Shown here: one piece after another, positions 45,165 to 64,000 of the stretch | Numbering within the stretch: position 1 is the stretch's first letter | Layout of the letters: each line of letters opens with the position of its first letter | Assembly (NCBI GenBank): GCA_949293555.1 | Contig: CASFDV010000003.1 | Location: 71,614 to 135,613, forward strand | DNA: 64,000 nucleotides | Direction of reading: 5' to 3' | Source of the DNA: an uncultured Bacillota bacterium | GTDB taxonomy: Bacteria; Bacillota_I; Bacilli_A; RFN20; CAG-826 | The notes under the pieces: model-generated | What the model was told of the DNA's origin: nothing | Databases searched by the model: none | What the model saw: the letters and a program-made list of their open reading frames with translations, nothing else | Program-made: the position numbers and the translations under genes

Positions 45165-45197
45165 CCGCCTTGTACAAAATAGGCTGGTAGCAAGAGA

Positions 45198-46577: not shown

Positions 46578-46585
46578 CGCTATCC

Positions 46586-46612
46586 GGGAACGCGAGGCGT
46601 TCCCCTTTTTCT
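46586..46612 (+). terminator. Rho-independent terminator
   Basis: GGGAACGC, loop GAG, GCGTTCCC, C, TTTTT. Confidence 0.8.
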
Positions 46613-47487: not shown

Positions 47488-47546
47488 GTGTCACGGAAAG
47501 CTGTTCCTTGTGCTCGCCGCGCACCTGATGAACAGCAGATTTTGCA

Positions 47547-47594
47547 CACCATACTATGTAAAATATGCACGTTTTGATATACCATAGTATGCAA
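47547..47594. repeat. Palindromic array B: two 15-bp units, 33-bp period
   Basis: CACCATACTATGTAA (47547-47561) and TACCATAGTATGCAA (47580-47594) lie exactly 33 bp apart; the core CATA-S-TATG is palindromic. The array ends ten bases before the ATPase ATG, overlapping its likely promoter. Confidence 0.75.
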
Positions 47595-47604
47595 AGATAA
47601 CGGT

Positions 47605-48876
47605 ATGGACACGGAACTTCTCATTCGGATAATGGACGATAACGTCCGCCTGGCGGCGAGGAAGCGCATCTTCCCCCGGGACATTTTCCTCGAGCCCAAG
47701 GGGAACCACGTCCTTTCCGGGGTGAGGAGAGCCGGGAAGTCCACCATCCTGCAGGGAGAGATCCAAAGGCTCCTCGAGGAAGGGGTGCCGGCTTCCTCTA
47801 TCGTCTATCTCAACTTCGACGATGAGCGCCTTGCTTTCATGAGGCGTGAAGAACTGGACGACATCCTTCTGGCGGAGGCCAGGAGATCTCTTGACCCCGA
47901 CGGGGCGACATTCTTCCTGGACGAGCTGCAGAACATCGATGGATGGGCCAACTTCGCAAGGCGCCTGGTTGACGAAGGGAGGCGCGTCTACATCACGGGA
48001 AGCAACGCCCGGATGCTTTCCCGTGAGTTCGAGGGAGTCCTGGGGGGAAGGTACCTCATCCATGAGGTTTTCCCCTATTCCTACGAAGAGGCTTCGCGCG
48101 CCGCGGGGATCGCGGACGGGAGGGATACGCTTGCCGTTGGGGAAAGGGAAAAATTCCTTGCCTCCTACCTCCAGTGGGGCGGCTTCCCGGAATCCCTTTC
48201 CTACGTGGACAAGAGGGGATACCTTGGCTCCCTCTATGGGAAGATTCTCATCGGTGACATCGTCGAGCGGCACGAGGTGCGCCGCCCCCAGGTCCTTCGC
48301 CTCATGGCAAGGAAGCTCGCGGAGTCCGTGGGGGAGCCTCTTTATCTTTCCCGTCTTAGGGGGATCCTTTCTTCCCTGGGGGCGAACGTGAACGCCCAGA
48401 CCGTCACGGACTACCTGTCCTTTCTCGAGGAGGGATATTTGACTTTCTCCATACCTTGCGGGGTCGGCTCCTTCCAGGAAAAGGAAGGGGCAAGGAAACG
48501 GTACTTCGTCGATGACGGCATCCTTTCGCTTTTCCTCGAAGGCGGAAGGGGCGATTCCGCCCTCCTTGAGAACGCGGTGGCGATCGCCCTCCGGCGCAAG
48601 GCGGGGGAGGGGTCGCTCCGCTTCCTTCGCGGGAGAAGCGGGCGCGAGGTCGACTTCTATTGGCCTGAGCGCTCCCTCCTCGTCCAGTGCGCATGGTCGC
48701 TTTCAAACCCCGAGGCCTTCGAGAGGGAAGTGCGGGGGCTCCTCGCGTTCAATGGCGTCGTCAAAGAAGGTTCCCGTCTCTTGATCGTCACGCGCGAGGA
48801 AAAAGGCCAGATCGAGCAAGATGGGGTCCGGATCGAAGTGCTCCCTTTGGGAGAGTTCCTCAATTCCCAGTTATAG
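47605..48876 (+). CDS. AAA_14/DUF4143 family ATPase
   Basis: 423 aa. Walker A GVRRAGKS (~38-45), Walker B FFLDELQ (~101-107), sensor ITGSNARML, family marker LIHEVFPYSYEEA. The C-terminal DUF4143 domain has KRYFVDDGILSLFLEG, LENAVAIALRR and GREVDFYW. It is distant in sequence from the ATPase at 43816, so it is not a recent duplicate. It is preceded directly by array B. Function unknown; the C-terminal fold suggests DNA binding or cutting. Confidence 0.8.
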   Translation: MDTELLIRIMDDNVRLAARKRIFPRDIFLEPKGNHVLSGVRRAGKSTILQGEIQRLLEEGVPASSIVYLNFDDERLAFMRREELDDILLAEARRSLDPDGATFFLDELQNIDGWANFARRLVDEGRRVYITGSNARMLSREFEGVLGGRYLIHEVFPYSYEEASRAAGIADGRDTLAVGEREKFLASYLQWGGFPESLSYVDKRGYLGSLYGKILIGDIVERHEVRRPQVLRLMARKLAESVGEPLYLSRLRGILSSLGANVNAQTVTDYLSFLEEGYLTFSIPCGVGSFQEKEGARKRYFVDDGILSLFLEGGRGDSALLENAVAIALRRKAGEGSLRFLRGRSGREVDFYWPERSLLVQCAWSLSNPEAFEREVRGLLAFNGVVKEGSRLLIVTREEKGQIEQDGVRIEVLPLGEFLNSQL

Positions 48877-48906
48877 CAGGACGGCTTCCCTATAGCTTGT
48901 GTTGAA

Positions 48907-51855
48907 CTAGGGGAGTGGCCGCCATCCTTGCTGGAGGAAGCGGCGCTTGGAGACGAGGACACTTCTCCCGTCCTCGGTCTCGAAAGCGACAAGGAAAGCT
49001 AGCGTCCAGCGTATGCGCACCTTCCCGTAGGAGGCGTGTTCCAGCACGGCGCCTCTGAGGAGGCCCTCCGCGCCATGGAGGAATGGCTGTTTTGCAGGTA
49101 TCGCGTTTCCTTGTTCATGTCCCCCCGAGCTTTTTTCGTGCAGTTGAACATGATCTGCAGGGATTTCAGTCAATGGTTCCTCTTCCGCCTTCTTCTCGTC
49201 CACATTGTTTCCAGAGAGGACATCATTTCGCGGAGCCAGTTCCTCGTCCTTGCCCCGAGGCCCTTCCTCGGAAACCGGATCAGCCTTTTCGGACGTCATC
49301 GGGGAGTCCGTTTCTTCATCGCTATAGAACCCGGCGATCTTCTCGCCTTCGTGCCTGTTGACCCCAAGATATGAAAGAGATTCTTGTTCATGGCGTCTGA
49401 ATGAACGTACCGCGTCATTCATCAAAGGGGCGTGGAATAGTTTTAGTTTCAGAAGAAGTTCAAAGTCTTGTATGGACAGACCCGTGACCTTTGTGAACAG
49501 GACAGGGTCTTGACTGCGGATTACGTCAACGAGAGATTGTTCCCGTTTGTCAGTGAGGTACATGAATATGGGGATTCGCTCAATGAATTTTTGCAGTTTT
49601 TCACGTATTTTCTTCTTTTTGTCAGCGTATTCCTTTTTCTCTTTCTCGATTTCCTTACTCAGTAACTTAGGATCGCCGCCTTCTTTGCTATCAAGTTCTT
49701 TAATTCTTTTCGACGTTCCGATGACAGCCGCTATTACTTCCCGTGGCCTGCCAAGTTGCCTGAATCCTTCGATTTTCTCAATTGCCCCTAAAGCATCAGG
49801 GGTAGAGAGAATATTTGTCAGTACGTCCGCGCTAAGATTGATGAGGCGTATGTCATTCCATTTCTTGGCAAGCATATCTGCCGTGGTGCCTGTAGATAGG
49901 AAATCAAGTATGGATGATGCATTTACATTTTGGAAACATGATCCGTCGTAGACAAGAACCGGAAGATAAGAGATAAGTTCTTCGATATTCTTCTCCTGTG
50001 TTTTGCCCTCTAGGCATGACACGTCTCCGGCGTTCGCCCCATACTCGGCGATCTGGCTGAGGGCGCGCGTGGGTGAGAAGTCAAAGATGTAGCACTGTTC
50101 CTTGTAGATGATCTCGTTTCCTTCCTCATCCTTTCCCGTCCACGGGGACTGAATTCGGAAGGCGCTTTGGAAATAGGTCTCGGGCGACTTGAGATCTCGG
50201 AGCATCAGAATTCCAGACCATGGCCGCACAGTCACTCCTGTGGTTAGTTTCCCGCAGGTGAGTGTGATTGTTTTTGTAAGCAAGGGATTAGCCATTGCTT
50301 CCTCAACTGGAGCAAGGGCGTCGATTCCGTTGCCGGCTTCCGGGCCAGACGCATCGATGATATGGAACTGGTTATAGAAGGGACGGTGTTCGGGACTCTG
50401 GAGCAGCTGTTTCATTGCATGGCAGGCGGCGACGCCCTTGAGGAACCACACAGTATGGTTCATTGCCTTGGGTGAGTTTTTCCCTTGGGAGAAAGGCCAT
50501 GGTGCCTCGTCTCTCTCCCCAAGTTCCTTTTCTGGGCTTCCAGCATGAAGCAGGGTTAGAAACTTAGACACTTCATTCTCGTGTAGAAAACGATAAGTCC
50601 CTCCGCTTTCTTCTGCCTTGAAAAATTCGTCAAGCGCAAAGGAATCTTTCCCTTCCTTCACCCCCGCTTCTTCTACCCATTCAGGAAGCCTGATTGCATA
50701 TAGCATTATTTCGGGAAGTGATCGATACGGATTTTCCCCTCTTCCCCCTTTCCAACTCGCCTTTGCCCTTTGCTCATCGCTATAGGTCCAGGTGAACATT
50801 TCTTTTTCGGTGAATTCCCCATTCCCTAGCATTCGGAAGGGTGTGCCAGAAAGGTACAGATAGTGTTTGCTATTTATGCGCAGGTCTTTTTCAGAAAGAG
50901 GGTAATTGTCTAACGACTTTTCAGCAACTTCTGCCTCTGCATCAGGATTCTCCTCGTCCACGTTTCCGAAGAAGGCTTTCGCTCCTTCCCTCCAAGCACC
51001 AAAGTGATACTCGTCGAAGATTACGAGATCCCAGTGCTCCTCATGGAGGAATTCATGCTGTTTCTTAAATTTTCCTGCGGTTTTGTCGGCTCCCAGAAGA
51101 TCTTGAAAGGAACCGAAAATGACGATTGGGCGAGACTTGTCCGCTTCCTTAAATTGTTTGTCTATCTTTTTCCCAAGGGACTCTCCCTTCTTCCGCGAGA
51201 TGTATTGCCATCCTTCGAAATCCCTGTGGCGGAGCAAGTCTTTCTCCCATGCGTTTTCTGCCGCTGGTTTGAAGGTGAATATAAGGACTTTCTTATAGCC
51301 CATTCTCTTCGCCAGCTGGTAAGCGGCGAAGGTTTTCCCGAAGCGCATCTTGCAGTTCCATAAAAAGCGGGCGGGAGCCCCATCTGGATCGTCGTCGGTT
51401 TCCTGGAAATGCCTTCCGGCTGCTTGGACCGCTTCCTCTTGCTCTCTTCTCATCGGAAAGGAAAGGTCTCGGGCCTCCTGGCTTTCTCGTTGATAGAAAA
51501 CATCCCAATATGCGGACACTGCCTCTTCCTTCCTGCAGCGGAAAAATTCAGTTTTCCTACCGTCTGCGCTTTCGAGCCTCCGCACCCCCTTTTCCTCGAG
51601 TCGACGGTGGACTGCGTGGTCGTCGAAGGTTGTTCCGTCGGGACGGATAGCCGCCCCGTGGAAAATTATCTCGTAGTCTTCTACACCCGCTGGACGGAGC
51701 ACGCCTGAGACGGCCTGTTCAACCCTTTCCTTCACCCCAACGGAGGTCATCCCGATTTTAAGAACATCTTCTGGGTCCCTTGAATCATGGTATATGTAGA
51801 TTTCAAGGCTCTTTGAGGGAGGTTGGGCGAGCACAATTGTCGGTTTCTCATTCAT
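48907..51855 (-). CDS. SF2 helicase-nuclease with N-terminal GIY-YIG/T5orf172-like domain
   Basis: 982 aa from the ATG at 51855, which overlaps the upstream methyltransferase stop by eight bases. Residues ~14-95 resemble T5orf172/GIY-YIG (LEIYIYHDSRD, LKIGMTSVGVKERV, HAVHRRLEEKG). The helicase core has a variant Walker A CKMRFGKTFAAYQLA, motif II IFDEYH, motif III LSGTPF, and motif VI-like QSAFRIQSPW. A coiled, Lys/Glu-rich region (~690-730) and an acidic linker precede a basic C-terminal domain. It is the likely restriction and translocation subunit of the operon. The sequence is A+T-richer than core genes. Confidence 0.75.
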   Translation of the reverse strand: MNEKPTIVLAQPPSKSLEIYIYHDSRDPEDVLKIGMTSVGVKERVEQAVSGVLRPAGVEDYEIIFHGAAIRPDGTTFDDHAVHRRLEEKGVRRLESADGRKTEFFRCRKEEAVSAYWDVFYQRESQEARDLSFPMRREQEEAVQAAGRHFQETDDDPDGAPARFLWNCKMRFGKTFAAYQLAKRMGYKKVLIFTFKPAAENAWEKDLLRHRDFEGWQYISRKKGESLGKKIDKQFKEADKSRPIVIFGSFQDLLGADKTAGKFKKQHEFLHEEHWDLVIFDEYHFGAWREGAKAFFGNVDEENPDAEAEVAEKSLDNYPLSEKDLRINSKHYLYLSGTPFRMLGNGEFTEKEMFTWTYSDEQRAKASWKGGRGENPYRSLPEIMLYAIRLPEWVEEAGVKEGKDSFALDEFFKAEESGGTYRFLHENEVSKFLTLLHAGSPEKELGERDEAPWPFSQGKNSPKAMNHTVWFLKGVAACHAMKQLLQSPEHRPFYNQFHIIDASGPEAGNGIDALAPVEEAMANPLLTKTITLTCGKLTTGVTVRPWSGILMLRDLKSPETYFQSAFRIQSPWTGKDEEGNEIIYKEQCYIFDFSPTRALSQIAEYGANAGDVSCLEGKTQEKNIEELISYLPVLVYDGSCFQNVNASSILDFLSTGTTADMLAKKWNDIRLINLSADVLTNILSTPDALGAIEKIEGFRQLGRPREVIAAVIGTSKRIKELDSKEGGDPKLLSKEIEKEKKEYADKKKKIREKLQKFIERIPIFMYLTDKREQSLVDVIRSQDPVLFTKVTGLSIQDFELLLKLKLFHAPLMNDAVRSFRRHEQESLSYLGVNRHEGEKIAGFYSDEETDSPMTSEKADPVSEEGPRGKDEELAPRNDVLSGNNVDEKKAEEEPLTEIPADHVQLHEKSSGGHEQGNAIPAKQPFLHGAEGLLRGAVLEHASYGKVRIRWTLAFLVAFETEDGRSVLVSKRRFLQQGWRPLP

Positions 51856-53443
51856 CTTCTGTACTTCCTTCGGGCCAGACGGTGGATCTGATGAGAGAAA
51901 TTTCTGCGTCATTCAGGCCAAAATATGTGTTCAGTAGCTCGTCGCTCCAAATCCTGTCCCAAGGCACTACAGGAACTTGGGCATAATTCCTCCTCAGACA
52001 ATCGTGTGTTGTCCTTGTCAAGGAAAGGAAATAGTGGAAAAACCGCGTATCAATATAGCTAGCCACTGAATCGGCTTCAGCCCGATTTTTGAACGGTGCT
52101 GCAGCGATAAATGTTTCCGTGCAGATATCTCCTGGCTCGCCAATCTCGCAAAGGACGCGGTCGTTTTCGGGCGTCCCGCTTCCTACCGCTTTCGGGAGAA
52201 AAATCTTCCAGCAATCAATGAATTCCCCTCCCTTACGAATCCGGTCTTTCGAAACGAACTGATAAAGCCGTCCGTCTTCTTTGGTTCTTCCGAGAATGCG
52301 CACACAATCTTTGAAGGGCTCTACGTTGAGAACAAGATTGTATTTTTCTGGTGCCGAGAAAGAGTCTGTTGCGAAATCGAAGGGATCTTGCCCAGTAAGG
52401 ATGTCCTGGAAGGAACCTTTTGCAATGCGTTTGACTTTAGCCACGAGTGAAAGGGCTTCCGGAAGCCGAATGAAAGTCTCCATCCCTTTTTCCAGGAACG
52501 GACGCTTCAATACAGTTTCACGTGTCAAGTCGTAGTGTGTATGTATGGTCGGGTCGCCACAATATGATCTATCCCAAAGGAAGAAGCAAATTCCTCCCTT
52601 GATATCGACATCTTTGGGGAAGCAGTCCTTGCTATGAAGGTAATCATGGAACTCTTTGATGTGATTCCCCGAAATCATTTCCCTTCGGAAAGGCGCGAGG
52701 CCGTTTGCCACCCCCGTTCCCAGCCATTTCGCAGGTATGATCATTACCACCTTGCCTGGGTTGCACTTAATTGCATTTTCAACGAAATATTGGAAAATTG
52801 GATTTGCCCCGTTATTCGCACGATTGTTCCCTAATTGATATGGCGGATTGCCTATGATCACGTCGAAATGCATGTCGAAAATCTCCTTTATGTCGCGATG
52901 AATGAATTCGTAGGCGAAGCGTTCCTTGCCTTCACGCCTCTCATCTGAGAACAGCGATGCGGGAGCGCCGCAATTGATGCATTTCCCATTTTTGTTAAAG
53001 GAGTGGCATAGATTGCTATCGAAATGAATATTCCCTTCTGAATTGTTCATCGTCGTCGCGGAGTATTTCCCGGAAGCGTCCTTCGAACAGTAGAGGGTCC
53101 TTCTGCTCATAAGCGCAGTCAATTCCGTGATGGCGATTCCATAGATTTGATGTTCGAGGATATGGCGCCTCCGTTCCTCTGGATCCGGGATCGTCTCCTT
53201 CAGCCCTTCGAAAAGCCGCCGGGCGATCTCGCGGAGGAAGATTCCGGTCTTGCAGGCCGGGTCAAGGAACGTCTTGCTTGGTTCAGAGAAGATGCCGGGG
53301 GAATTCTCCTCGAGCATGTCGAGCATCTTGTTCACGAGCCACGGGGGAGTGAACACCTCGTCATTGGAAAGGTTTGCGATTGTCTCCAGGATGTCAATTT
53401 CCCTTCGACCAGTGATAAGGAGGTTTTCTGGCACATCGCTCAT
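51848..53443 (-). CDS. Eco57I-type N6-adenine DNA methyltransferase
   Basis: 531 aa; start chosen at 53443 with AGGAGG eight bases upstream, giving MSDVPENLLITG. FTPPWLVNKMLDML precedes motif I TFLDPACKTGIF (Lys for the usual Gly), and motif IV is IIGNPPYQLGNN (~198). A zinc-knuckle-like CHSFNKNGKCINCG lies between them. The C-terminal part probably reads the DNA target. It overlaps both neighbours by a few bases, so it is in one operon with them. Confidence 0.8.
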   Translation of the reverse strand: MSDVPENLLITGRREIDILETIANLSNDEVFTPPWLVNKMLDMLEENSPGIFSEPSKTFLDPACKTGIFLREIARRLFEGLKETIPDPEERRRHILEHQIYGIAITELTALMSRRTLYCSKDASGKYSATTMNNSEGNIHFDSNLCHSFNKNGKCINCGAPASLFSDERREGKERFAYEFIHRDIKEIFDMHFDVIIGNPPYQLGNNRANNGANPIFQYFVENAIKCNPGKVVMIIPAKWLGTGVANGLAPFRREMISGNHIKEFHDYLHSKDCFPKDVDIKGGICFFLWDRSYCGDPTIHTHYDLTRETVLKRPFLEKGMETFIRLPEALSLVAKVKRIAKGSFQDILTGQDPFDFATDSFSAPEKYNLVLNVEPFKDCVRILGRTKEDGRLYQFVSKDRIRKGGEFIDCWKIFLPKAVGSGTPENDRVLCEIGEPGDICTETFIAAAPFKNRAEADSVASYIDTRFFHYFLSLTRTTHDCLRRNYAQVPVVPWDRIWSDELLNTYFGLNDAEISLIRSTVWPEGSTEDE

Positions 53444-54123
53444 TGGAATGCCTCCTGAAGGGGAACAGGGCCGACATGGGTTGTTTCGGGAGGAATCCAT
53501 TCCCCTTTCTCATCGAACTGGTCGTAGTTGAACAAATCCTGCTCGGGCGCGCCTTCCACTATGTCCTGGTAGCGGATCCCCCTCCCTTCCAGCGTGCCGT
53601 CTTCCCCGAGGCTCCATTGAAAAAGAGAGACGTCTTTCCCTGTCGCGTCCTTGAACGAAAGCGCGTCCCCTTGCACAAGGTTTGCCTTGAGGATCCCCGC
53701 GATGAGAGCTTCCTCCTCGGGCGACATGTCCCGCTTAAGCGAACGCTTCAGGCTCTTCCTGAATTCGGAAAGGCAGCGTGCCCTGGCTTCTTCGACGTTA
53801 TCTTGCTGAAGCTCGATCCCGTATGTCGAAAGGGCGACCCGGGCGTGGAGGAAGAAAGAGGCCTTCCCTACTTCCTCAGAAGACCAGGATTCCTCTCTCT
53901 CTCTCTCTCTCAGCAGCGCTCTAGCGGTCTTTAGCTTTCTTCGGAAGATTTCGACGAGGAAGTTCCCGTTCCCGCAGGACGGTTCGAGGAAGGTGGCGTC
54001 GATCGAGTAGCTTTCCTTCCTGACCAGGTCCAGCATCGCCTTCACCTCCCGAGGCGCAGTGAAGACCTCGCCGCTCAAGGCGACTCTTTCGCGGCTCTTG
54101 ATCTGAGAGGAAGGCTTCTTCAT
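53440..54123 (-). CDS. Methyltransferase-fold protein, first gene of the R-M operon
   Basis: About 227 aa. GEVFTAPREVKAMLDLV and motif I ATFLEPSCGNGNFLVEIFRRKL are clear, plus LSTYGIELQQDNVEEAR for the second strand. There is no NPPY, so it has SAM-binding parts but no catalytic motif IV. It may be a partner subunit of the next methyltransferase. The start is uncertain: ATG 54123 lacks a good ribosome binding site and a TTG at 54183 is possible. It overlaps the next gene by ATGA. Confidence 0.65.
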   Translation of the reverse strand: MKKPSSQIKSRERVALSGEVFTAPREVKAMLDLVRKESYSIDATFLEPSCGNGNFLVEIFRRKLKTARALLREREREESWSSEEVGKASFFLHARVALSTYGIELQQDNVEEARARCLSEFRKSLKRSLKRDMSPEEEALIAGILKANLVQGDALSFKDATGKDVSLFQWSLGEDGTLEGRGIRYQDIVEGAPEQDLFNYDQFDEKGEWIPPETTHVGPVPLQEAFQ

Positions 54124-54263
54124 AAGGAAATGTTCAAACTGAAGCCTCCTGATATCAAGGGAAAGTAGGTGTTTCCTTGGCAAACGCTGAGAAACTCCCT
54201 TCTTTTAGCGAGGAAATCCATTTACCAGGCTGCCGAAGCCTTCTCCTTGGCCAGGGCGTTAAG

Positions 54264-54344
54264 TTGCATAACGTGCAAGAAGCGCTGATTCCTAACTTGC
54301 ATAACGTGCAACAAAACAGAAATGCAAGCTTGCATAACGTGCAA
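54264..54344. repeat. Palindromic array C: three identical 15-bp units, 33-bp period
   Basis: TTGCATAACGTGCAA at 54264-54278, 54297-54311 and 54330-54344. The spacers are 18 bp and unrelated. Arms TTGCA/TGCAA are inverted. It lies upstream of the minus-strand R-M operon. Confidence 0.9.
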
Positions 54345-54392
54345 ACATCCGATGGCACCCGATCTTTTGCCCTAGGGAAATATAGTGCGTTT

Positions 54393-54416
54393 CCCGTTAA
54401 CGGGCATTGCTATAAC
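54393..54416 (+). promoter_or_regulatory. rpsO promoter with perfect palindrome
   Basis: TGC-TATAAC (extended -10, 54408-54416) is preceded by the 12-bp palindrome CCCGTTAACGGG (54393-54404). The leader to the ATG is ~115 nt and can fold (GGCCG/CGGCC arms), possibly an S15 autoregulatory site. Confidence 0.45.
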
Positions 54417-54538
54417 ACACTTGCCCTCCCGACCGCGCACGCGTATAGTCCGCCTTGCGACATCCCCCAGTCCAGGCCGTCTCCTCGACCGGGCCGGAGG
54501 GAAGGCCGCCTAGTACCAAAGAGAAAGGAGAAACGCAC

Positions 54539-54808
54539 ATGGCCCTCAAGAAGGAAGAGAAGAGCACCATCGTCAAGAAGTACGGCAAGAGCGCGACCGA
54601 CACCGGAAGCGCCGCCGTCCAGGTCGCCCTCCTCACCAAGCGCATCGAAGAGCTGACCGCCCACCTCAAGGCGAACAAGCAGGACGCCTGCGCCCGCCGC
54701 TCGCTCCTGATCCTGGTCGGCAAGAGGAGGAGCCTCCTCGCCTACCTGATGGATCACGACCGCCCGGCCTACGAGTCCCTCATCGCCTCGCTCGGCCTCC
54801 GGAAGTAG
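54539..54808 (+). CDS. rpsO: 30S ribosomal protein S15
   Basis: 89 aa, standard length. EEKSTIVKKYGKSATDTGSAAVQVALLTKRIEEL, LILVGKRRSLLAYL are the S15 signature. It binds 16S rRNA early in 30S assembly. AAAGGAG precedes the ATG. pnp, the usual neighbour, lies 7.7 kb downstream. Confidence 0.95.
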   Translation: MALKKEEKSTIVKKYGKSATDTGSAAVQVALLTKRIEELTAHLKANKQDACARRSLLILVGKRRSLLAYLMDHDRPAYESLIASLGLRK

Positions 54809-54827
54809 TCCCGGAAGAAGGAGATCG

Positions 54828-54856
54828 AAAAGCCGTCCCGCAGGGGCGGCTTTTCT
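54828..54856 (+). terminator. Rho-independent terminator of rpsO
   Basis: AAAAGCCG(TCCC), loop, (GGG)CGGCTTTT. Confidence 0.8.
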
Positions 54857-55448
54857 CTTCCCAAGAGATCGGGAGTGATTTAATCGTTCCAAACGGCCCA
54901 TCATCCCCAGGGTCCGGCACAGGTTGTTCGATGGAGAAGAGCCCTTGGCTTTGGTCCCATTCAAAAATTGCATATTCGGCAAAATCAAGGATCCATAACT
55001 GAAGTTCCTCCTGTTTTCTGCCAAAACACATGAAAGGTTCCTCATGATTTTTGCCAAACGCATTGAAGCAGATTGTGTCCGGAACCTTGTGCAGAAGGTC
55101 CTGCTCTTCAGGGGCTAGCAGATTGAGCAGATCGCAAAACGCATCTCCTCGCCCGTCATGCCGATGGAGCAGGGCTTCAGCGCCGCCGAGGTGACGAGGT
55201 AGGTCTTCCGGCGGCGCAGGGGCTTCGCTATGGGCCCGTGCTTCCTTTAGCCGAGGAGGCCGATGCACTCCGTCGTTTACGCTGAGTTCTGGTTACTCCC
55301 AATGAGAAATATGCGGTGACAATGTGATTAAGCCGGCAAATCACGCTCTCTTTTCCGGATAAAGAAGATTAACCCTTCGGAGCACGCCACCTTTTTGGTG
55401 AATGCGCCACTTCCCTTCATCCAGGGGGGGCTTCCGATTGACGGAAGG
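54857..55448. other. Gene-poor, A+T-richer stretch, probably decayed
   Basis: A minus-strand frame (about 54880-55150) reads like protein (DLLNLLAPEEQDLLHKVPD, FGRKQEELQLWILDFAEYA) but has no good start and no match I recognise. It may be a fragment of an acquired gene. No RNA gene is evident. Confidence 0.3.
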
Positions 55449-55475
55449 GCAGGGCGAGGCCTCGCCCTGCTTTTT
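55449..55475 (+). terminator. Strong terminator with no obvious upstream gene
   Basis: GCAGGGCGAGG and its perfect inverse CCTCGCCCTGC form an 11-bp stem, followed by TTTTT. rpsO already ends at 54856, so the transcript it stops is unidentified. Confidence 0.65.
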
Positions 55476-55707
55476 CTTCCTATTTCCGTGCGTTGTCCAA
55501 AGGAGAGGAATCCTCTCTTGAAAGAGAAGCCTTCCGAATTTACCTTGGCATGGAAAACTTTGGGAGGGAAAGAGGCTGGAAGAAGGAAAGAAAGAGGACG
55601 GGAGCCGGATCGAGGTCTCCTGGGACCTGCTGGACGAGGAGCGCGAGGAGGAATCCTTTTGCGATGCCGCGACGGCCCTTGCCCGCTGCCTGAACGAGAA
55701 GGGCCGC

Positions 55708-58707
55708 GTGGACATGGAACGGATCGCTCGCCAGGCAGGGCTTTCTGTCGAGGAGGCGCTGAAGGCGCTCGGAGGAGCGGTCTATCTCGATCCAAGGAGC
55801 GTCGCCTCCGCCCCCCGCTACCTCACCAGCGACGAATATCTTTCCGGGAACATCTTCGAGAAGCTGGGCGAAGCAAAGGAGGCCGCCGAAAGGGAGCCCC
55901 TCCTTTTCACGCGGAACGTGAAGGCGCTGGAGGCGATCCTTCCTCCCGAGATTCCGGGGAGCGAGGTGTACATCGCCCTTGGCGCCCCCTGGCTCCCCGA
56001 GGAGACGGTGGATGATTTCATCTACTACCTCTTCGGCGATTTCTACGATTACTTCGGGAGCAAGTTCCGCCCCGGGAAGCTTGCGACAAGAAGCGAGAGC
56101 GGCGTCTGGAAGATTTCCCAGAAGACGCTTTTCAACAGCGGGGACAAGGAAGTCATCAACTTCCAGAAATACGGGACCTCCCGCGTAAGCGCGATCCGGA
56201 TCATCGAGGCGACGCTCAACTGCTCCACCATCCGCGTCTATGACACGGTGGAGGGCAAGGACGGGAAGAGGAAGCGCGCCTTCAACGAGAAGGCGACCCA
56301 CCTCGCCTGGGAGAAGCAGGAGCTTATCGAGAAAGCCTTCCGCGACTGGGTGCACGGCGACAAGGCGCGCCTCAAGCGCCTCATGGGAATCTACTACGAG
56401 AAGTACGGGGCTATCCGGAAAAGAACCTACCACGGGGACTTCCTTTCCCTCCCAGGCCTCTCGGGCGGGATCGCCCTCAGGGACTACCAGAAGGACGCGG
56501 TGGCAAGGATCCTTCTCTCCCCTTCCACCCTCCTTGCCCACGACGTCGGGGCGGGGAAGACCTACGTCATGGCGGCCGCGGCGATGGAGCTCCGGAGGAT
56601 GGGCCTTGCGAAGAAGGTCATGATCGTCGTCCCAGGGAGCATCCTCACCCAGTGGAGGGCCATCTTCCTTTCGATGTACCCCCGGGCGAGCCTCTACTGC
56701 ATCGGCCGCAAGGAGTTCGAGCCAAGCCGGAGGAAGAAGGCCCTGGAGAGGATCGCGCTGGGAGGCTACGACGCCGTCCTTTGCACCTACTCCGCCTTCG
56801 GGATGATCCCCGCCCGCGCCAAAGAGGGGGATGAGGGGCGGCAAAGGAAGGCGCCTCCCAAAAGAAGCCTTTACTTCGGCTACTTCTTCGAAGACCTCGG
56901 GATCGACGCCCTCTTCGTCGACGAGGCGCATAACTTCAAGAACCTCCCGACGGAGGGGATGCAGGAGGTCGGGGGCGCCTCTTCCTCCGAGAGGAGCCTC
57001 GACCTTCTCCGGAAGGTCCGCCACGTCCAGGGCGAGACGGCGGGCAAGGGGAAGGTCGTCTTCGCCACCGGGACCCCGATCACCAACTCGATCGTCGACG
57101 TCTACACCATGCAGCGGTACCTTCAGCCGGGCGAGCTGAAGCTTCTGAGGCTCGAGCGCTTCCCGGACTGGCTGGGGCTGTTCGCGGAGAAGAAGATCCG
57201 CTTCGAGGTGGACGTCACCGGTGCGGGCTTCCGCCTCATCTCCCGCTACTCACGCTTCCATAACCTTCCCGAGCTCTCGGCGATCTTCTCATCGATCATC
57301 GACCTATACGCGATCGAGAAGGAGAACCTTCCCGACCTCCATGGCTACACGGACATCGTCTCCCCGAAGTCGGGGGAGTTCTCCTCCTTCCTGAAGAAGC
57401 TCTGCCGCCGGGCGGACCTCATCCGCGGAAGAAGGGGCGGAAGCAAGGACAACATGCTCAAGGTCACGATGGACGGGAGGAAGGCGGCCCTGGACCTTCG
57501 CCTGGTCGACGAGAAGGCGCCCTTCGATCCGGAAGGCAAGCTGGCCAAGTGCGCCGAGGAGGCAAGCAGGATCTACTTCGCCACCATGGGACGGAAGCTC
57601 GGGCAGCTCGTCTTCTGCGACACCTCCGTCCCATCCTCGGGCTTCAACGTCTATGACGAGCTCAAACGCCTTCTCGTCGAAAAAGGGGTGCCCGCGGAGG
57701 AAATCGCCTACGTCCACGAGGCAACCTCCGACAGGAGCCGGGACCTTCTCTTCTCCGCGGTGCGGGAAGGAAAGGTGAGGATCCTCATCGGATCGACCTT
57801 CAAGATGGGGATCGGGGTGAACGTCCAGGACAGGCTATATGCGATCCACCACCTCGACATCCCCTGGCGTCCCGCGGACATGGTCCAGCGGGAGGGAAGG
57901 ATCCTCCGCGAAGGAAACCAGAACGAGGAAATCAAGATATTCCGCTACATCGCCGAGGGCTCCTTCGACGCCTACTCCTGGCAGCTCCTCGAGACGAAGC
58001 AGTCTTTCATCTCGCAGCTTCTTTCCGGCGGACTCATGAGCCGGGACGGGGACGACGTGGATGAGGCGGCCCTCGACTACGCGGAGGTAAAGGCCCTGGC
58101 GATCGGGAACCCCATGGTCCGGAAGAGAGTGGAGGCGCAAAACCGCCTCTCGCACCTGAAGCTCCTCCAGCGCGCCTTTGTCCTGGAGCAGCAGGAGAGC
58201 AAGCGCTCCCTGGCCTCTTTGCCCGAGAAGATCGCCTTCGAGGAGAAGCGGCTGTGCGACCTCCGGGAAGACCTCGCGGCAAGGGACGCCTTCCTCGGTT
58301 CCTATCTCGGCGAGGAAAAGGACAGGATGCGGGGCATCCTCTTCTCCGAGCTCATAGGGAAGGTCGGCATGGTGGAGGCGCGGAAGCTCTTCGAATACCG
58401 CGGCTTCGAGATCCGTTCGCCCTCTTACATCGAGTCGGGGAAGCCCTTCGCCATCCTCCGGAAGAGCGGATTCGAGCACCGCGCCTACCTCGGCAAGACG
58501 AAGGAGAAGTCGCTCTTCCTCCTCGATCACTACCTTGATTTCACCCTGGTCCGGCTCCTCAAGGGGAAGGAGGAAGAAATCGTGAACCTCAGGACAAGGA
58601 GGAAGGCCTTGCAGGAGAGGCTTTCCCACGCGGGAGGCTATGCGAAGGAGATCGAGGATGCCGAGAAGGCCCTCGAGGAAATAGAAAAGGAGATGCTGCA
58701 TGGATAG
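55708..58707 (+). CDS. SNF2-type helicase of the mobile-element methylase-helicase class, N-terminal truncated
   Basis: At least 999 aa. Helicase motifs: I LLAHDVGAGKTYVM (~275-288), Ia VVPGSILTQW, II FVDEAHNFKN, III FATGTPITNS, V GSTFKMGIGVNVQ, VI QREGRILREGNQN. This is typical of the huge methylase-helicase proteins on conjugative elements, but the methylase part is absent. The frame stays coding for ~60 codons upstream (to about 55522, e.g. EVSWDLLDEEREEE) without ATG, GTG or TTG, so the true start is lost or frameshifted; GTG 55708 is the first usable codon. It overlaps the next gene by eight bases. Confidence 0.75.
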   Translation: MDMERIARQAGLSVEEALKALGGAVYLDPRSVASAPRYLTSDEYLSGNIFEKLGEAKEAAEREPLLFTRNVKALEAILPPEIPGSEVYIALGAPWLPEETVDDFIYYLFGDFYDYFGSKFRPGKLATRSESGVWKISQKTLFNSGDKEVINFQKYGTSRVSAIRIIEATLNCSTIRVYDTVEGKDGKRKRAFNEKATHLAWEKQELIEKAFRDWVHGDKARLKRLMGIYYEKYGAIRKRTYHGDFLSLPGLSGGIALRDYQKDAVARILLSPSTLLAHDVGAGKTYVMAAAAMELRRMGLAKKVMIVVPGSILTQWRAIFLSMYPRASLYCIGRKEFEPSRRKKALERIALGGYDAVLCTYSAFGMIPARAKEGDEGRQRKAPPKRSLYFGYFFEDLGIDALFVDEAHNFKNLPTEGMQEVGGASSSERSLDLLRKVRHVQGETAGKGKVVFATGTPITNSIVDVYTMQRYLQPGELKLLRLERFPDWLGLFAEKKIRFEVDVTGAGFRLISRYSRFHNLPELSAIFSSIIDLYAIEKENLPDLHGYTDIVSPKSGEFSSFLKKLCRRADLIRGRRGGSKDNMLKVTMDGRKAALDLRLVDEKAPFDPEGKLAKCAEEASRIYFATMGRKLGQLVFCDTSVPSSGFNVYDELKRLLVEKGVPAEEIAYVHEATSDRSRDLLFSAVREGKVRILIGSTFKMGIGVNVQDRLYAIHHLDIPWRPADMVQREGRILREGNQNEEIKIFRYIAEGSFDAYSWQLLETKQSFISQLLSGGLMSRDGDDVDEAALDYAEVKALAIGNPMVRKRVEAQNRLSHLKLLQRAFVLEQQESKRSLASLPEKIAFEEKRLCDLREDLAARDAFLGSYLGEEKDRMRGILFSELIGKVGMVEARKLFEYRGFEIRSPSYIESGKPFAILRKSGFEHRAYLGKTKEKSLFLLDHYLDFTLVRLLKGKEEEIVNLRTRRKALQERLSHAGGYAKEIEDAEKALEEIEKEMLHG

Positions 58708-59836
58708 AAATAGAGAGATCGCCCAGGACGCGAACATTCCCTCCCTTTCCGCGGGAAAGGCGGTGGAGATCCTTTCGAAGGCCTATCTCGCGCTGGCGAA
58801 GGCCGGGAAGCCTTTCCGCCTCTTCCCTTCCACGATGCTCTGGGGGCCTCCGGGCGTGGGGAAGTCCCAGGCGGTCCGCGAGATCGGGGAAATACTCGAA
58901 AGGGAGACGGGGAAGAAGGTCGTCCTCACCGACGTGCGCCTCCTTCTTTTCAACCCCGTCGACCTCCGGGGCATCCCGACCTTCGACAAGAACCGGGAGT
59001 TCGCCATATGGCTGAAGCCCAAGATCTTCGCCATGGACCCCGGGGACGGGACGATCAACATCCTTTTCCTCGACGAGATCACCGCGGCGCCCCAGTCGGT
59101 CCAGGCCTCCGCCTATCAGATTACCCTCGACAGGAAAGTGGGGGAGCACGGGCTTCCGGAAAACTGCATCGTGATCCTGGCGGGGAACCGCTTGACGGAC
59201 CGCTCGGTGGCGACCAGGATGCCCAAGGCCCTGGCCAACCGCCTCATGCACTTCGAGATCCGCGCGGATTTCCCCTCCTTCCTCCGCTGGGCGGTCTCGC
59301 GCCACCTCAACGAGAAGGTCCTGGGGTTCCTCTCCTTCGATTCCTCCAATCTCATGAAGTTCTCCGCGGAGGAAGAGTCCCTCGCCTTCGCCACGCCCCG
59401 CTCCTGGGAGATGGTCTCCCGCATCCTGGATGAAATCGAGCCGGACCCTCAGAAGGCCTCGCCCTATATCCAGGGGCTCCTCGGGAAGGGCCTGGCGCTT
59501 GCCTTCCTCAGCTATTGCAGGATCTACCGCGGCCTTCCCGACCCCAAGGACATCTTCGAGGGGAGGTTTCCCCCCGCAGGCAAGGGGGCGGACGTCCAGT
59601 ACGCCCTGGTCTCCTCGCTCACCCACTACGTCTTTCCCCGGAAGGAAGATTTCCCCAAGGTGAGGAACACGATCCTCTACGCCACCGAGCATCTGACCCC
59701 GGACTTCGCCTATCTCCTCATGGACAACTACTCCTATTTCCGGCCCGGCTACCAGAAGGACCTCCTCGAGAAGGTCCCCGAATACAAGGAATTCATCCGG
59801 AAGAAAGGCGCGCTTCTCAATGGAGCGGGACGATAG
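58700..59836 (+). CDS. MoxR-like AAA+ ATPase
   Basis: 378 aa. Walker A is GPPGVGKS (~49-56), Walker B ILFLDEITAAPQSVQ, sensor 1 IVILAGNRLTDRS, and arginine finger region PKALANRLMHFEI; the class is AAA_5/MoxR. Family knowledge: MoxR ATPases work with a VWA partner to remodel target proteins. The next gene encodes just such a partner and overlaps by 17 bp. AAAGGAG lies before the ATG. Confidence 0.8.
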   Translation: MDRNREIAQDANIPSLSAGKAVEILSKAYLALAKAGKPFRLFPSTMLWGPPGVGKSQAVREIGEILERETGKKVVLTDVRLLLFNPVDLRGIPTFDKNREFAIWLKPKIFAMDPGDGTINILFLDEITAAPQSVQASAYQITLDRKVGEHGLPENCIVILAGNRLTDRSVATRMPKALANRLMHFEIRADFPSFLRWAVSRHLNEKVLGFLSFDSSNLMKFSAEEESLAFATPRSWEMVSRILDEIEPDPQKASPYIQGLLGKGLALAFLSYCRIYRGLPDPKDIFEGRFPPAGKGADVQYALVSSLTHYVFPRKEDFPKVRNTILYATEHLTPDFAYLLMDNYSYFRPGYQKDLLEKVPEYKEFIRKKGALLNGAGR

Positions 59837-61097
59837 GGCGGAGGAGAGGAAGGCCGCGAGGAAGCTTCTCCTCGCCCGGATGGACATCCTGGCAAGGCAC
59901 GGCTTCTTCGGGATGCTCCTCATGGACGCTCCGCTGGGCCTCACGAAGGAATGCCCCACCGCGTATACCGACGGGAGGGGAATATATGTGAACCCCTCCT
60001 TCATCGAGGGGTTTAGCGTGGAGGAGGTGGGCTACCTCCTTCTCCACGAGGCGCTCCACATCGCCCTCGACCACTGCGGGCGCCGGAAGGATCTGGACAA
60101 GGAAACCTATGACATCGCCGCGGACATCGTCGTGAACTCGACGATCCTCTATAGCCTCGGGATGAGATTCGAGGAAGGCCTCCTCCTCGGAAAAGGCACT
60201 GCGAGCCCCGTTTCCATGATCCACGTGGCCCCGGACGGGAGGGAAGGCCATCTGTGCACCGCGGAAGAGGTCTATGCGATGCTTCCGAAAGGGAAGGCGC
60301 GCAAGGGAGCTTCCGGAACGATGGGCGGAATGCCCGGCATGGGGTCTGCTCAAGGGGGACAGTGCGGCCCGTTCTTCGACGACCATTCCTATTGGAAGCC
60401 CGCGGGGGAGGAGGAGAAGGCGAAGATCCTCTCCTTCGGCGAGGAATACATGAGGAAGCAAAAGGCCGACGCGGAGTTCGGAAGGAAGGGGATCGGACGC
60501 CTTCCGGCGAACCTGGAGCGGACCATCCTCGCCCTTCATCGCGGCAAGGTCGACTGGCGCCTCGCCCTCCAGGAGTTCCTGCAGCTGGAGATATCCGACT
60601 ACAGCTTCCTCCCGCCCGACCGCCGCCACCAGGAGGATTTCTTCCTTCCGGACTTCAATGACATGGGGGACCCCGAGCTCCGGAACATCGTCTTCCTCGT
60701 CGACGTGTCCGGCTCGATCTCCAGGAAAATACTCACTGCCTTCTTCTCGGAGGCGAGAAGCCTCGTCGATCAGTTCAAGGGGAAGGTCTCCTGCTGGATC
60801 GGCATCTTCGACGCGATGCTTCAGGACCTCGTCCCCTTCTCGAGCATGTCGGACGTAGGGAAGATCAAGATGAAGGGGGGAGGGGGAACGAACCTATTTG
60901 AGCCTCTTGAGCAAGTCTTCCGGAGGATCCAGGAAGACTCCATCCTCGCCTTCGTCGTCATGACGGACGGCCTTATGGTTTTCCCAGGGCCCAAGGAGTT
61001 CCGCGGGAAGCCGGTCCTTTGGGCGATCCCAGGGGATGAGGAAAGCATCGGCAGGAATGGGGGGCCTTCCTACGGGCAGGTCGTCCCTATCAACTGA
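59820..61097 (+). CDS. DUF2201-type metallopeptidase/VWA protein
   Basis: 425 aa. The N-terminal half has a zinc-protease motif HEALH inside LLLHEALHIALDH (~77-83). A Gly/Met-rich linker follows (~160-185). The C-terminal half is a VWA-like domain with an intact metal-site start FLVDVSGSIS (D~295) and GGGGTNLFEP, then VVMTDG. Both sites look usable. It is the predicted partner of the MoxR ATPase. The protease substrate is unknown. Confidence 0.8.
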   Translation: MERDDRAEERKAARKLLLARMDILARHGFFGMLLMDAPLGLTKECPTAYTDGRGIYVNPSFIEGFSVEEVGYLLLHEALHIALDHCGRRKDLDKETYDIAADIVVNSTILYSLGMRFEEGLLLGKGTASPVSMIHVAPDGREGHLCTAEEVYAMLPKGKARKGASGTMGGMPGMGSAQGGQCGPFFDDHSYWKPAGEEEKAKILSFGEEYMRKQKADAEFGRKGIGRLPANLERTILALHRGKVDWRLALQEFLQLEISDYSFLPPDRRHQEDFFLPDFNDMGDPELRNIVFLVDVSGSISRKILTAFFSEARSLVDQFKGKVSCWIGIFDAMLQDLVPFSSMSDVGKIKMKGGGGTNLFEPLEQVFRRIQEDSILAFVVMTDGLMVFPGPKEFRGKPVLWAIPGDEESIGRNGGPSYGQVVPIN

Positions 61098-61434
61098 ATG
61101 ATTAGGGGAAATCGTAATTTTGAGGTCATTATTTCAGGGTTTTCCTGCTATTCATTCCATTCTCCGAACTATGGATAGCCTCGGAAGGAAATCTTCGATG
61201 AACCTCTTCTTACGGGCGGGATGCCCGGGGCATCCGAGGGGCCGCGCGTTGGGGACGGCGGATATATCTTCGTCGTGGAAGCCGTTCTTGCGGGGCTGAG
61301 GGAGCGCCCATGGTCCCTTCGTGTCCTCCCCGGTCCGCTTCGAAAGGAAGCGACCGATGGAAATCCCTTAGGGAAGGAAAGAATCACTTTGAGACTCCTT
61401 TCTAACCGGGAGGCCGCCTCTACGCGTTCCTAGC
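61098..61434. other. Intergenic stretch without a supported gene
   Basis: I see no ribosome binding site with a credible frame, no RNA gene and no terminator with a T tail. Confidence 0.4.
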
Positions 61435-61800
61435 GGCATCTTTCATCAGAGCCTTGATCGCCTGCCTCGCCTTGGGGCAGAGCTGCACCTCGTCGAAGAC
61501 GATGAGGGTGTCGCGCCTCTTGAAGGAGACTCCGTAGGCAAGCTGGAGGCGGAGGAAGAGATAGTCCAGGTCCCGCGGGGCGTCTAAGAGCCTTCTCACT
61601 TCCTCTCCGGCGTTGGTGAAGTCGACGAGGAGATGCGAGGAATACTCCTTCCTGGCGAACTCCTTCACGATGGTGGACTTCCCGACGCGCCTCGCTCCTT
61701 CTATAAGGAGGGCGGTTTTCCCTTGGTAGCGTCCCTTCCAGGCGAGAAGCCTGTCGTAGATCTTTCTTCGGGAGAAGGCGATGGCCGATGAATACGTCTT
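61420..61800 (-). pseudogene. AAA ATPase (DUF4143-type relative), N-terminal fragment
   Basis: About 125 codons remain: RKIYDRLLAWKGRYQGKTALLIEGARRVGKST (Walker A GARRVGKS), HLLVDFTNAGEEVRRLL, and Walker B LIVFDEVQLCPKARQAIKALMKD, after which the frame ends. The family is ~400 aa, so two thirds are missing. No start codon is seen at the expected place before RRKIYD; the frame instead continues through array D. The break is near 61440. Confidence 0.7.
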
Positions 61801-61824
61801 TTTTCGGCCCCGTTCAAGGATATC

Positions 61825-61905
61825 TTGCGTTTTCCGCAACAGGAAATTGACCATTTCATGCGTTTTCCGCAATAGAGAATCGCCGGAACTCTGCGTTTTC
61901 CGCAA
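61825..61905. repeat. Palindromic array D: three 15-bp units, 33-bp period
   Basis: TTGCGTTTTCCGCAA (61825), ATGCGTTTTCCGCAA (61858) and CTGCGTTTTCCGCAA (61891) lie exactly 33 bp apart, with unrelated 18-bp spacers. On the minus strand the frame is open (LLRKT every 11 residues) and runs into the ATPase fragment. Confidence 0.9.
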
Positions 61906-62159
61906 TAAAACATGTAGCAGGCCCGCTGAAGCGCCGGAATCGGATACTTCAGGACACCGGAAAACGGAAAGAGATTCATAAGACCGAGAAGGGGAGCGTG
62001 GCAATTCCTTTCCAAGCACGGACATTCCGTCTGATGGGGATCAATCCCCGGATCTTGCGATTGAAGAACAAGCCTGAACATCCTTGTGCCCGCGGCCCTT
62101 TTGTCCGATCGTTGCGTTCTCCTGTTCTGTGACAAATGATGTGAACCAAAATCAGGAGC

Positions 62160-62408
62160 ATGAGGACGATAGCGCAAGGCAGCAAGACGCGGATCCACGC
62201 CGTCCGGCTGGCCGTCGTCTCCAGGTGGCCGATCAAGAAGGTCTGCGGCCACTGCCGCGTCTCCAGGGCGACGCTCTGGAGGTGGGTCAGGCGCTACGAC
62301 GGGACGGAGTTCTCGGACAGGGCGTTCCGAAAGGAGGGCGCCCCCGGGGCTAGGCGAGGCGCCCCATGCTCCTCCGGCGTTTCACTTCATCTGTCAGCTA
62401 ACAGTTAA
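62160..62408 (+). pseudogene. Transposase helix-turn-helix fragment
   Basis: 82 codons beginning with a transposase-like HTH (KTRIHAVRLAVVSRWPIKKVCGHCRVSRATLWRWVRRYDG), as at the start of IS3/IS481/IS630-type transposases. The catalytic part is absent. It marks past insertion between the ATPase fragment and pnp. Confidence 0.5.
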
Positions 62409-62453
62409 CCGAGCTTCATGATGCGGGTCCCTCTGCCTTCGCCCTCCTCGAGG

Positions 62454-62462
62454 TGCTAGAAT
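62454..62462 (+). promoter_or_regulatory. pnp: Extended -10 promoter of pnp
   Basis: TGC-TAGAAT; the start is expected near 62469, giving a ~38-nt leader. Confidence 0.5.
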
Positions 62463-62506
62463 TCGCCCCGTTAAGGAATAAAAGATAGAAAGAGAGACAG
62501 AAACAG

Positions 62507-64000
62507 ATGAAGAAAATCTATTCCCTCGATTTCGCCGGCAGGAAGCTCCAGGTCGAGCTCGGCGAGATCGCCAAGCAGGCCGACGGAGCGGCCTTCGTCC
62601 GCTTCGGCGACACGGTGGTGCTTTCCACTGCCTGCTGCAGCGACCAGCCCAAGGACGGCGACTTCTTCCCGCTGACGGTCGAGTTCCTCGAGCGCCAGTA
62701 CGCCATCGGGAGGATCCCCCAGGGATTCCTCCGCCGCGAGGGCCGTCCCACCGAGCACGCCACCCTCTCCGCCCGCCTCATCGACCGCCCGATCCGCCCG
62801 CTCTTCCCGGAAGGCTTCCGGAACGAGGTGCAGGTGGTGAACACCGTCATGTCCGTCGACTACGACAACGACCCGCAGATGACCGCGATGTTCGGGAGCT
62901 CCCTCGCCCTCTGCATCAGCGACATCCCCTTCGACGGCCCCGTCGCCGGGGTCTACGTCGGGCGCGTGGACGGGAAGCTTATCATCGACCCGACCGACGA
63001 GGAAATGAAGAAGAGCGACATCTCCCTTGCCGTCGCCGGCACGAAGGAGGCCATCATGATGGTCGAGGCCGGCGCCGACCAGGTCCCCGAGGAGGAGATG
63101 CTGGACGCCATCATGTTCGGCTTCGAGGCCATCAAGGAGCTCTGCCTCTTCCAGGAAAGGATCGTCGCCGAGTGCGGGAAGGCGAAGCGCCACATCGACC
63201 TCTACCAGCCCGACCCCGCGATCGTCCAGGACATCGACTCCCGCATCAAGGAGAGGATGGTCAAGGCCATCTCCATCTTCGACAAGCTCGAGAGGCAGGA
63301 CGCGATCGACGCCCTTAAGAAAGAGATCCAGGACGACTACGACTCCCGCGCCTACGAAAGCGAGAAGGCGCACGTCAAGACCATGCGGATGGTGAACGAC
63401 ATCCTCGAGAAGATGGTCGCCGACGAGGTCCGCCGGCTCATCACCGAGGAGAAGATCCGCCCCGACGGACGGAAGGTCGACGAGATCCGCCCGCTCGACG
63501 CCCAGGTCGACCTCCTGCCCCGCGCCCATGGCTCGGCCATGTTCACCCGCGGCCAGACCCAGGTCATCTCCACGACCACCCTCGGCCCGATGTCCGACGC
63601 CCAGATCATCGACAACATCACCACCGAGACCGAGCGCCGGTTCATGCATCACTACAACTTCCCGCCCTATAGCGTCGGCGAGGTCCGGCGCATGGGAAGC
63701 GTCGGCCGCCGCGAGGTCGGCCACGGGAAGCTGGGGGAGAGGGCCCTTTCCTACGTCCTTCCCTCCGTCGAGGAGTTCCCCTACACCATCCGCTGCGTCT
63801 CCGACGTCGTCGAGAGCAACGGCTCCTCCTCCCAGGCCTCGATCTGCGCCGCCTGCATGTCGCTCATGGCCGCCGGCGTTCCCATCAAGGCCATGGTCTC
63901 CGGCATCGCGATGGGCCTCATCTCGAGCGGCCCCCTCGACGGGAAGCATCCTTACACCATCCTCACCGACATCCAGGGCCTCGAGGACCACTTCGGGGAC
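62507..64000 (+). CDS. pnp: Polyribonucleotide nucleotidyltransferase, 3' partial
   Basis: 498 codons seen of ~700. First RNase PH domain: [51 protein letters not shown]. The helical linker and second RNase PH domain follow ([74 protein letters not shown]). KH and S1 domains lie beyond the window. It degrades RNA from the 3' end with phosphate. Confidence 0.95.

What the first reader, a model, noticed from the sequence alone, without database searches (positions are those of the whole stretch)
55522..61097. Helicase-MoxR-VWA/metallopeptidase operon as a candidate defence or conflict system
A SNF2-type helicase stripped of its methylase part, a MoxR AAA+ ATPase and a protein with both an HEALH protease motif and an intact VWA metal site overlap in one operon. 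MoxR-VWA pairs are known chaperone modules. Joining them to a mobile-element helicase and a possible protease suggests a DNA-sensing machine that remodels or cleaves a protein target.
Basis: partly seen in the sequence, partly recalled or inferred. Interest (0 to 1): 0.7.

Follow-up and report, generated by a model that had tools for sequence, protein, structure and literature searches.

The report
Three-gene helicase, MoxR, peptidase-VWA module
This is a real, compact set of three co-transferred genes (a DNA-tracking motor, a protein-unfolding ring and a probable metal-dependent protease) that hops between gut bacteria at unrelated chromosomal sites; it looks like an undescribed machine for stripping or cutting proteins on foreign DNA, but a defence role is inferred and not shown.

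Summary
The three genes are really there, intact and overlapping. They are not a fragment of a conjugative element. The same order, helicase-MoxR-peptidase/VWA, recurs as a stand-alone module of about 5.5 kb in at least 12 other gut Bacillota loci, at unrelated sites, mostly beside housekeeping genes. The three protein families co-diverge (Mantel r 0.86-0.87) and do not follow host taxonomy. The helicases, with one solo copy, form a fully supported branch apart from sampled plasmid and phage relatives, which carry a methylase where tested. A congener with 92-98% identical flanking DNA lacks the module, so the window holds an insertion or replacement that truncated an ATPase gene. dN/dS is 0.09-0.13 between two close species. 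HExxH and MIDAS residues are invariant. The MoxR + peptidase-VWA pair is known from phages (PMC7824862) and the SNF2 family from DarB-type proteins (PMC5512222); my searches found no description of the three together. Defence-island enrichment was not shown. The most likely function is an anti-invader, DNA-guided protein-remodelling or proteolysis system (about 40%).

The parts
54859..61438 (.). Segment holding the module, replaced by 1740 bp in congener G047
   Evidence: Window 44628-54858 and 61439-64000 align to G047 (92-98% over 53058-54858 and 61439-64000, patchier in the restriction genes); 54859-61438 has no counterpart there
55609..58707 (+). HEL: SNF2/DarB-type dsDNA translocase without methylase (start uncertain: frame open from 55522, first canonical start GTG 55708)
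   Evidence: Pfam, PHROG DarB-like 2.8e-220, motifs and alignment, model matches SNF2 fold
58700..59836 (+). MOX: MoxR-type AAA+ ATPase
   Evidence: AAA_5/AAA Pfam, PHROG_1297 2.5e-82, conserved Walker A (GPPGVGKS in the window) and LFLDE
59820..61097 (+). VWA: N-terminal HExxHxxxxH metallopeptidase-like domain plus C-terminal VWA domain with MIDAS
   Evidence: DUF2201_N and DUF2201 Pfam, PHROG_1314 5.6e-65, invariant residues, VWA fold Z 12.9 over 285-425
61420..62025 (-). Remnant (201 aa) of an AAA_14/DUF4143 ATPase gene truncated by the segment; intact 523 aa in G047
54539..54808 (+). rpsO (S15), left neighbour
   Evidence: ORF, identified by reading the protein; rpsO lies directly before pnp in G104
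62507..64000 (+). pnp (PNPase), right neighbour
   Evidence: ORF, identified by reading the protein; found in 33 of 37 genomes of the genus
48907..54183 (-). Neighbouring restriction-modification genes (T5orf172/ResIII nuclease-helicase, Eco57I-type methylase, further methylase); not part of the conserved module
   Evidence: divergent from the G047 copy within the genes

Best explanation
A horizontally transferred three-component accessory machine that acts on proteins bound to invading DNA. HEL, related to the motor half of the DarB-type SNF2-methylase proteins of mobile elements, loads on and tracks double-stranded DNA. It brings in VWA, whose MIDAS domain docks the MoxR hexamer, as in RavA-ViaA and NorQ-NorD. 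The MoxR ring then pulls apart a DNA-bound protein of the invader (for example a relaxase, replication, coating or terminal protein), and the HExxH domain cuts it, disabling the plasmid or phage. Shown: the genes, their intact motifs, their conservation as one unit, their mobility between hosts and sites, and purifying selection. Inferred: complex formation, DNA tracking, proteolysis, target and anti-invader role.
For: Same three-gene order in many gut Bacillota loci. Coupled divergence of the three proteins, permutation p 2e-4. Discordance with host phylogeny: HEL 43% identical to congener G117, whose pnp is 82% identical, against 43-44% to Clostridia copies. Different flanking genes in congeners G000, G117, G639 and G641. 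Empty or alternative site in G047 and direct rpsO-pnp adjacency in G104. Purifying selection. Invariant HExxH, MIDAS, Walker and helicase motifs. SNF2 and VWA folds. Precedent: MoxR-vWA ternary systems with SWI2/SNF2 effectors (PMC7159879). Type III CRISPR, TIR or restriction genes next to some copies.
Against: No enrichment of PADLOC families in flanks over control regions. No PADLOC hit for VWA and only Walker-level hits for MOX. The pair MOX+VWA without HEL is common in phages, where a virion-assembly role was proposed (PMC7824862), so the pair is not intrinsically defensive. I know of no demonstrated peptidase activity for DUF2201_N, and the N-terminal domain found no confident structural relative. 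The VWA model is only moderate (pLDDT 67).
Confidence: 0.4

Rival explanations
1. A genome-maintenance machine for removing stuck or cross-linked proteins from the cell's own DNA, analogous in parts (DNA translocase, AAA+ unfoldase, metalloprotease) to eukaryotic DNA-protein crosslink repair, carried as an accessory stress-tolerance module.
For: Part list fits such a machine; many copies lie alone beside housekeeping genes and there is no defence-island enrichment.
Against: Very patchy (6 of 395 class genomes with the high-scoring MoxR) and transferred between distant hosts, unusual for core repair; the HEL family belongs to mobile-element conflict proteins.
Confidence: 0.2
2. A helper of incoming or resident mobile DNA (anti-restriction, or promoting establishment of the element that once carried it), domesticated from DarB-type proteins.
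For: HEL's closest relatives outside the module are DarB-like SNF2-methylase proteins of phages and plasmids; L044 sits next to coupling-protein-like genes.
Against: HEL lacks the methylase that defines the proposed anti-restriction mechanism; triad HELs form their own branch; no sampled mobile element has HEL with MOX and VWA, except a viral-collection contig that is a triad interrupted by an element.
Confidence: 0.15
3. A metal-insertion or complex-assembly chaperone in the sense of NorQ-NorD or RavA-ViaA, in which HEL only supplies a scaffold.
For: MoxR-VWA pairs studied so far mostly have such roles (PMC9976466, PMC13036017, PMC7159879).
Against: Coupled with an intact SNF2 motor whose divergence tracks the pair; I saw no conserved metabolic target gene next to the triads.
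Confidence: 0.1
4. A decayed fragment of a conjugative element with no present function.
For: HEL family is typical of such elements; a solo HEL exists in G123.
Against: Intact frames and motifs in many hosts, conserved order, dN/dS about 0.1; flanks without recognisable relaxase or transfer genes in most loci.
Confidence: 0.05

Closest known systems
MoxR + metallopeptidase-vWA pair of jumbo phages (PHROG_1297/1314; PMC7824862)
   Same: Same two protein families in the same partnership; Bacillus phage G MoxR is 48.8% identical to MOX and a VWA homologue lies 4.5 kb away.
   Different: Phage pairs carry no HEL; proposed role is virion assembly; here the pair is in bacterial chromosomes and tied to HEL.
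DarB-like SWI2/SNF2-adenine methylase proteins of phages and conjugative elements (PMC5512222)
   Same: HEL is homologous over nearly its whole length (31-42% identity).
   Different: No methylase in HEL, 1.0-1.26k residues against 1.5-4.9k (or split genes); separate branch in the tree, support 100/100.
MoxR-vWA-VMAP and related NTP-dependent ternary conflict systems (PMC7159879)
   Same: MoxR and vWA core with a third component and peptidases; SWI2/SNF2 ATPases occur among their effectors.
   Different: No VMAP was identified in the three proteins; the peptidase here is DUF2201_N fused to the vWA; those systems are preponderantly in multicellular prokaryotes, these hosts are gut Bacillota.
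RavA-ViaA and NorQ-NorD
   Same: MoxR ATPase working with a VWA partner (as known from the literature).
   Different: No helicase partner; they remodel metalloenzymes; no PDB chain matches MOX at E 0.001.
Zorya ZorD, DISARM DrmD and other SNF2 defence helicases
   Same: Shared SNF2 fold and weak profile matches.
   Different: Far below the NCBIfam cut-offs (72 against 610 bits for DrmD); their partner genes were not seen beside the triads in the families listed.

Membership tests
Phage-type MoxR + metallopeptidase-vWA pair | MoxR AAA+ ATPase of PHROG_1297 type | tested here: met
   2.5e-82
Phage-type MoxR + metallopeptidase-vWA pair | VWA protein with N-terminal HExxH domain and MIDAS | tested here: met
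   DUF2201_N/DUF2201, PHROG_1314, invariant residues, VWA fold
Phage-type MoxR + metallopeptidase-vWA pair | Peptidase activity | not testable with these tools
   Motif only
DarB-like SNF2-methylase antirestriction proteins | Homologous SNF2 motor with intact motifs | tested here: met
DarB-like SNF2-methylase antirestriction proteins | Adenine methylase in the same protein or neighbour gene | tested here: not met
   No methylase in HEL or in L042 and G123 HEL, while L111, L112 and L115 have one. In the window a separate restriction system lies nearby on the other strand, beyond rpsO
DarB-like SNF2-methylase antirestriction proteins | Falls within the mobile-element branch | tested here: not met
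   Separate branch, 100/100 (11 mobile-element rows)
MoxR-vWA-VMAP ternary conflict systems | VMAP third component | tested here: not met
   No VMAP-family match in the three window proteins; the conserved third gene is HEL. Neighbours in other loci were not all scanned for VMAP
Zorya | ZorA/ZorB motor genes beside ZorD | tested here: inconclusive
   ZorD model only 32.8 against 1500 bits; ZorA/B not among the families listed for flanks, but only 25 of 65 families are shown
DISARM | DrmD-level helicase | tested here: not met
   72 against cut-off 610 bits
Anti-phage defence system | Enrichment in defence islands | tested here: inconclusive
   13 loci against 19 controls, no clear excess
Anti-phage defence system | Protection from phage or plasmid | not testable with these tools
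   Needs plaque and transfer assays

The most novel reading that the evidence does not exclude
An undescribed type of bacterial anti-invader system in which a SNF2 translocase guides a MoxR unfoldase and a metal-dependent protease to proteins on foreign DNA, that is, immunity that attacks the invader's DNA-bound proteins instead of its DNA.
Probability: 0.33. Interest if true: 0.78.

Novelty: new variant of a known kind. Interest (0 to 1): 0.52.

Why it matters
If the inferred mechanism holds, it would be a route of immunity that remodels or proteolyses proteins on foreign DNA, and it would give the DUF2201 peptidase-VWA proteins, which accompany MoxR ATPases in many phages, a testable function. 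Even without that, it shows a methylase-free relative of the motor half of mobile-element antirestriction proteins fixed in a three-gene module that spreads among gut Bacillota.

Tried and rejected
(1) Fragment of a conjugative element: rejected. (2) Member of a PADLOC system: generic helicase or Walker matches only. (3) Defence-island enrichment by PADLOC scan of 114 flanking and 114 control proteins: no clear excess. It is a small test with longest-ORF gene calls, and only the 25 commonest families are shown. (4) CRISPR arrays near L074, L048 and L044 by direct repeats: none found at these settings. (5) Single-protein viral scan found no relatives. The alignment scan found 39 loci; all but one (L148) lacked HEL in the DNA held, and most had MOX+VWA. 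(6) No direct repeat of 9 nt or more joins the two ends of the inserted segment, so no sign of an integrase-type insertion. (7) MOX profile found no PDB chain at E 0.001. VWA profile hits on the HExxH region were weak (M. jannaschii MJ1213, E 0.0015). VIA-align rows covered only residues 282-425 in the main, so the peptidase domain's fold is untested. (9) DNA search for near-identical copies of the module in the genus found only diverged matches, so the ATC start could not be checked against a close copy.

Full report
WHAT IS THERE. Three + strand ORFs overlap between rpsO and pnp: HEL (frame open from 55522, ends 58707), MOX (58700-59836) and VWA (59820-61097). HEL carries SNF2-rel, ResIII and Helicase_C and no methylase. 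MOX is an AAA+ ATPase. VWA combines DUF2201_N, a putative metallopeptidase, with the DUF2201 VWA-like domain. PHROG places HEL with DarB-like antirestriction proteins (2.8e-220), MOX with ATPase family 1297 (2.5e-82) and VWA with family 1314 (5.6e-65). Across the aligned relatives HExxHxxxxHxxR and the MIDAS residues are invariant, and so are the helicase motifs of HEL. The predicted HEL model matches SNF2 remodellers, RapA and ZorD. The VWA C-terminal domain matches VWA/I-domains at Z 12.9, rmsd 2.8 over 139 residues.

HEL START. The conserved N-terminal block of relatives extends upstream of the first canonical start codon (GTG 55708). The codon in the place of their common Met is ATC 55609, preceded by GGGAG. 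A non-canonical start, or an error in the assembly, is therefore likely. This is an inference from alignment.

IT IS A CONSERVED MODULE. In the genus and family, G117, G044, G639 and G641 carry the same order (VWA is cut by the contig end in G044 and beyond it in G641), and G640 a broken contig of it. Of 395 genomes sampled from the class, six have MOX at over 500 bits, and all six have HEL-MOX-VWA. A scan of 84,980 species genomes with MOX gave twelve loci. Full or nearly full triads occur in Christensenellaceae, Oscillospiraceae, Lachnospiraceae, other Clostridia, Erysipelotrichaceae and two Allobaculum strains (HEL split into two frames in L051). In a sample of 348 genomes around the Lachnospiraceae copy (L049), only that genome itself scored in this class. 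Pairwise distances of the three proteins correlate (HEL-MOX 0.863, HEL-VWA 0.868, MOX-VWA 0.872; permutation p 2e-4). Adjacent genes mostly overlap by 1-23 nt or lie within 13 nt; two HEL-MOX gaps are 122-131 nt. Between two close species (L042, L043) dN/dS is 0.13, 0.09 and 0.10 for HEL, MOX and VWA.

IT MOVES. HEL of the window is 43% identical to that of congener G117, although their pnp proteins are 82% identical, and it is 43-44% identical to Clostridia copies. The module has different neighbours in G000, G117, G639 and G641. Congener G047 aligns at 92.4% over 53058-54858 and 97.6% over 61439-64000. The 6,580 bp between them, which hold the module, are replaced there by 1,740 bp carrying the rest of a 523-aa AAA_14/DUF4143 ATPase gene, of which the window keeps 201 aa. 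In G104 rpsO lies directly before pnp. No direct repeat flanks the segment.

IT IS NOT THE MOBILE-ELEMENT PROTEIN. Plasmid and phage relatives of HEL are proteins of about 1,500 to 4,900 aa, or split genes, with an Eco57I/N6 methylase in those tested (L111, L112, L115). None of the eleven examined has MOX or VWA beside it. In a maximum-likelihood tree the twelve triad HELs plus the solo HEL of G123 are separated from the eleven mobile-element HELs with support 100/100. Conversely MOX+VWA pairs without HEL are frequent in viral contigs and occur with other partners in bacteria (G021, G195, G320, G153). The literature already describes the phage pair and proposes virion assembly (PMC7824862), the SNF2-methylase family (PMC5512222), and MoxR-vWA ternary conflict systems whose effectors include SWI2/SNF2 ATPases (PMC7159879). 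Full-text searches found no description of this triad; the library is open-access only.

IS IT DEFENCE? Individual neighbours are suggestive: a type III CRISPR-Cas operon with Csm6 beside L074, a TIR-tubulin gene and a NERD-like gene around L044, a Card1-like nuclease gene near L048, and restriction-modification genes beside the window. But a control scan showed no clear excess: PADLOC families in 114 flanking proteins and in 114 control proteins from the same genomes were comparable (65 against 42 families, dominated by one or two loci on each side). Many triads sit alone among housekeeping genes. The defence claim therefore rests on patchiness, mobility and part list, which I judge as moderate evidence.

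MECHANISM (inference, about 0.4). HEL tracks dsDNA; VWA docks MoxR through the MIDAS domain; MoxR unfolds a DNA-bound invader protein and the HExxH domain cuts it. The main rival is a host DNA-protein repair machine with the same parts. I know of no shown activity of DUF2201_N, and its fold was not resolved here (VWA model pLDDT 67).

VERDICT. Observation confirmed. The fragment reading is rejected. A new combination of known parts, conserved and mobile. Function open, with a clear set of tests.

Noticed in passing
L148:3300-5986 and L047:1-1340: In two triads HEL is cut exactly at the codons for VQREGR (motif VI), with a large serine recombinase gene (L148) or the 3' end of a recombinase-like gene (L047) directly upstream, so an element is probably inserted there. 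Streptococcal IMEs are known to insert into snf2 of ICEs (PMC5357655); this extends the target to the stand-alone module.
   Followed up: partly
L075, L076, L077, L078 (G320, G195, G153): A second class of MoxR + peptidase-VWA pairs (about 37% identity to MOX), without HEL, with several different neighbouring ORFs of about 170-290 aa; in G153 they look like diverged paralogues in a row. Two tested have no Pfam match.
   Followed up: partly
L036:5724-11225 (G021): MOX-VWA pair of the triad type without HEL; neighbours are two DUF488-like genes, a TPR/Sel1 gene and a 319-aa protein without a Pfam match, suggesting exchange of the third component.
   Followed up: partly
window 48907-54183 versus L116: Restriction-modification genes beside rpsO are 73-80% identical or unalignable between two congeners in mid-gene while flanks are 92-93% identical, as expected for switching of specificity.
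   Followed up: no
window 55120-55212: A stretch of about 92 bp left of HEL matches two other places in the same genome (G000:C1:333764, G000:C2:410) and G648 at 73-78% identity; nature unknown.
   Followed up: no
L053 (Synechocystis pSYSA) and L055 (Thermus pTHEOS01): MoxR + VWA pairs on plasmids; in Thermus the pair lies in one run of genes with RecQ-like and UvrD-like helicases, another helicase partnership.
   Followed up: no
L037:9096-12047 (G123): A solo HEL (983 aa) without MOX or VWA, sister to the G117 triad HEL; perhaps a triad that lost two genes.
   Followed up: partly
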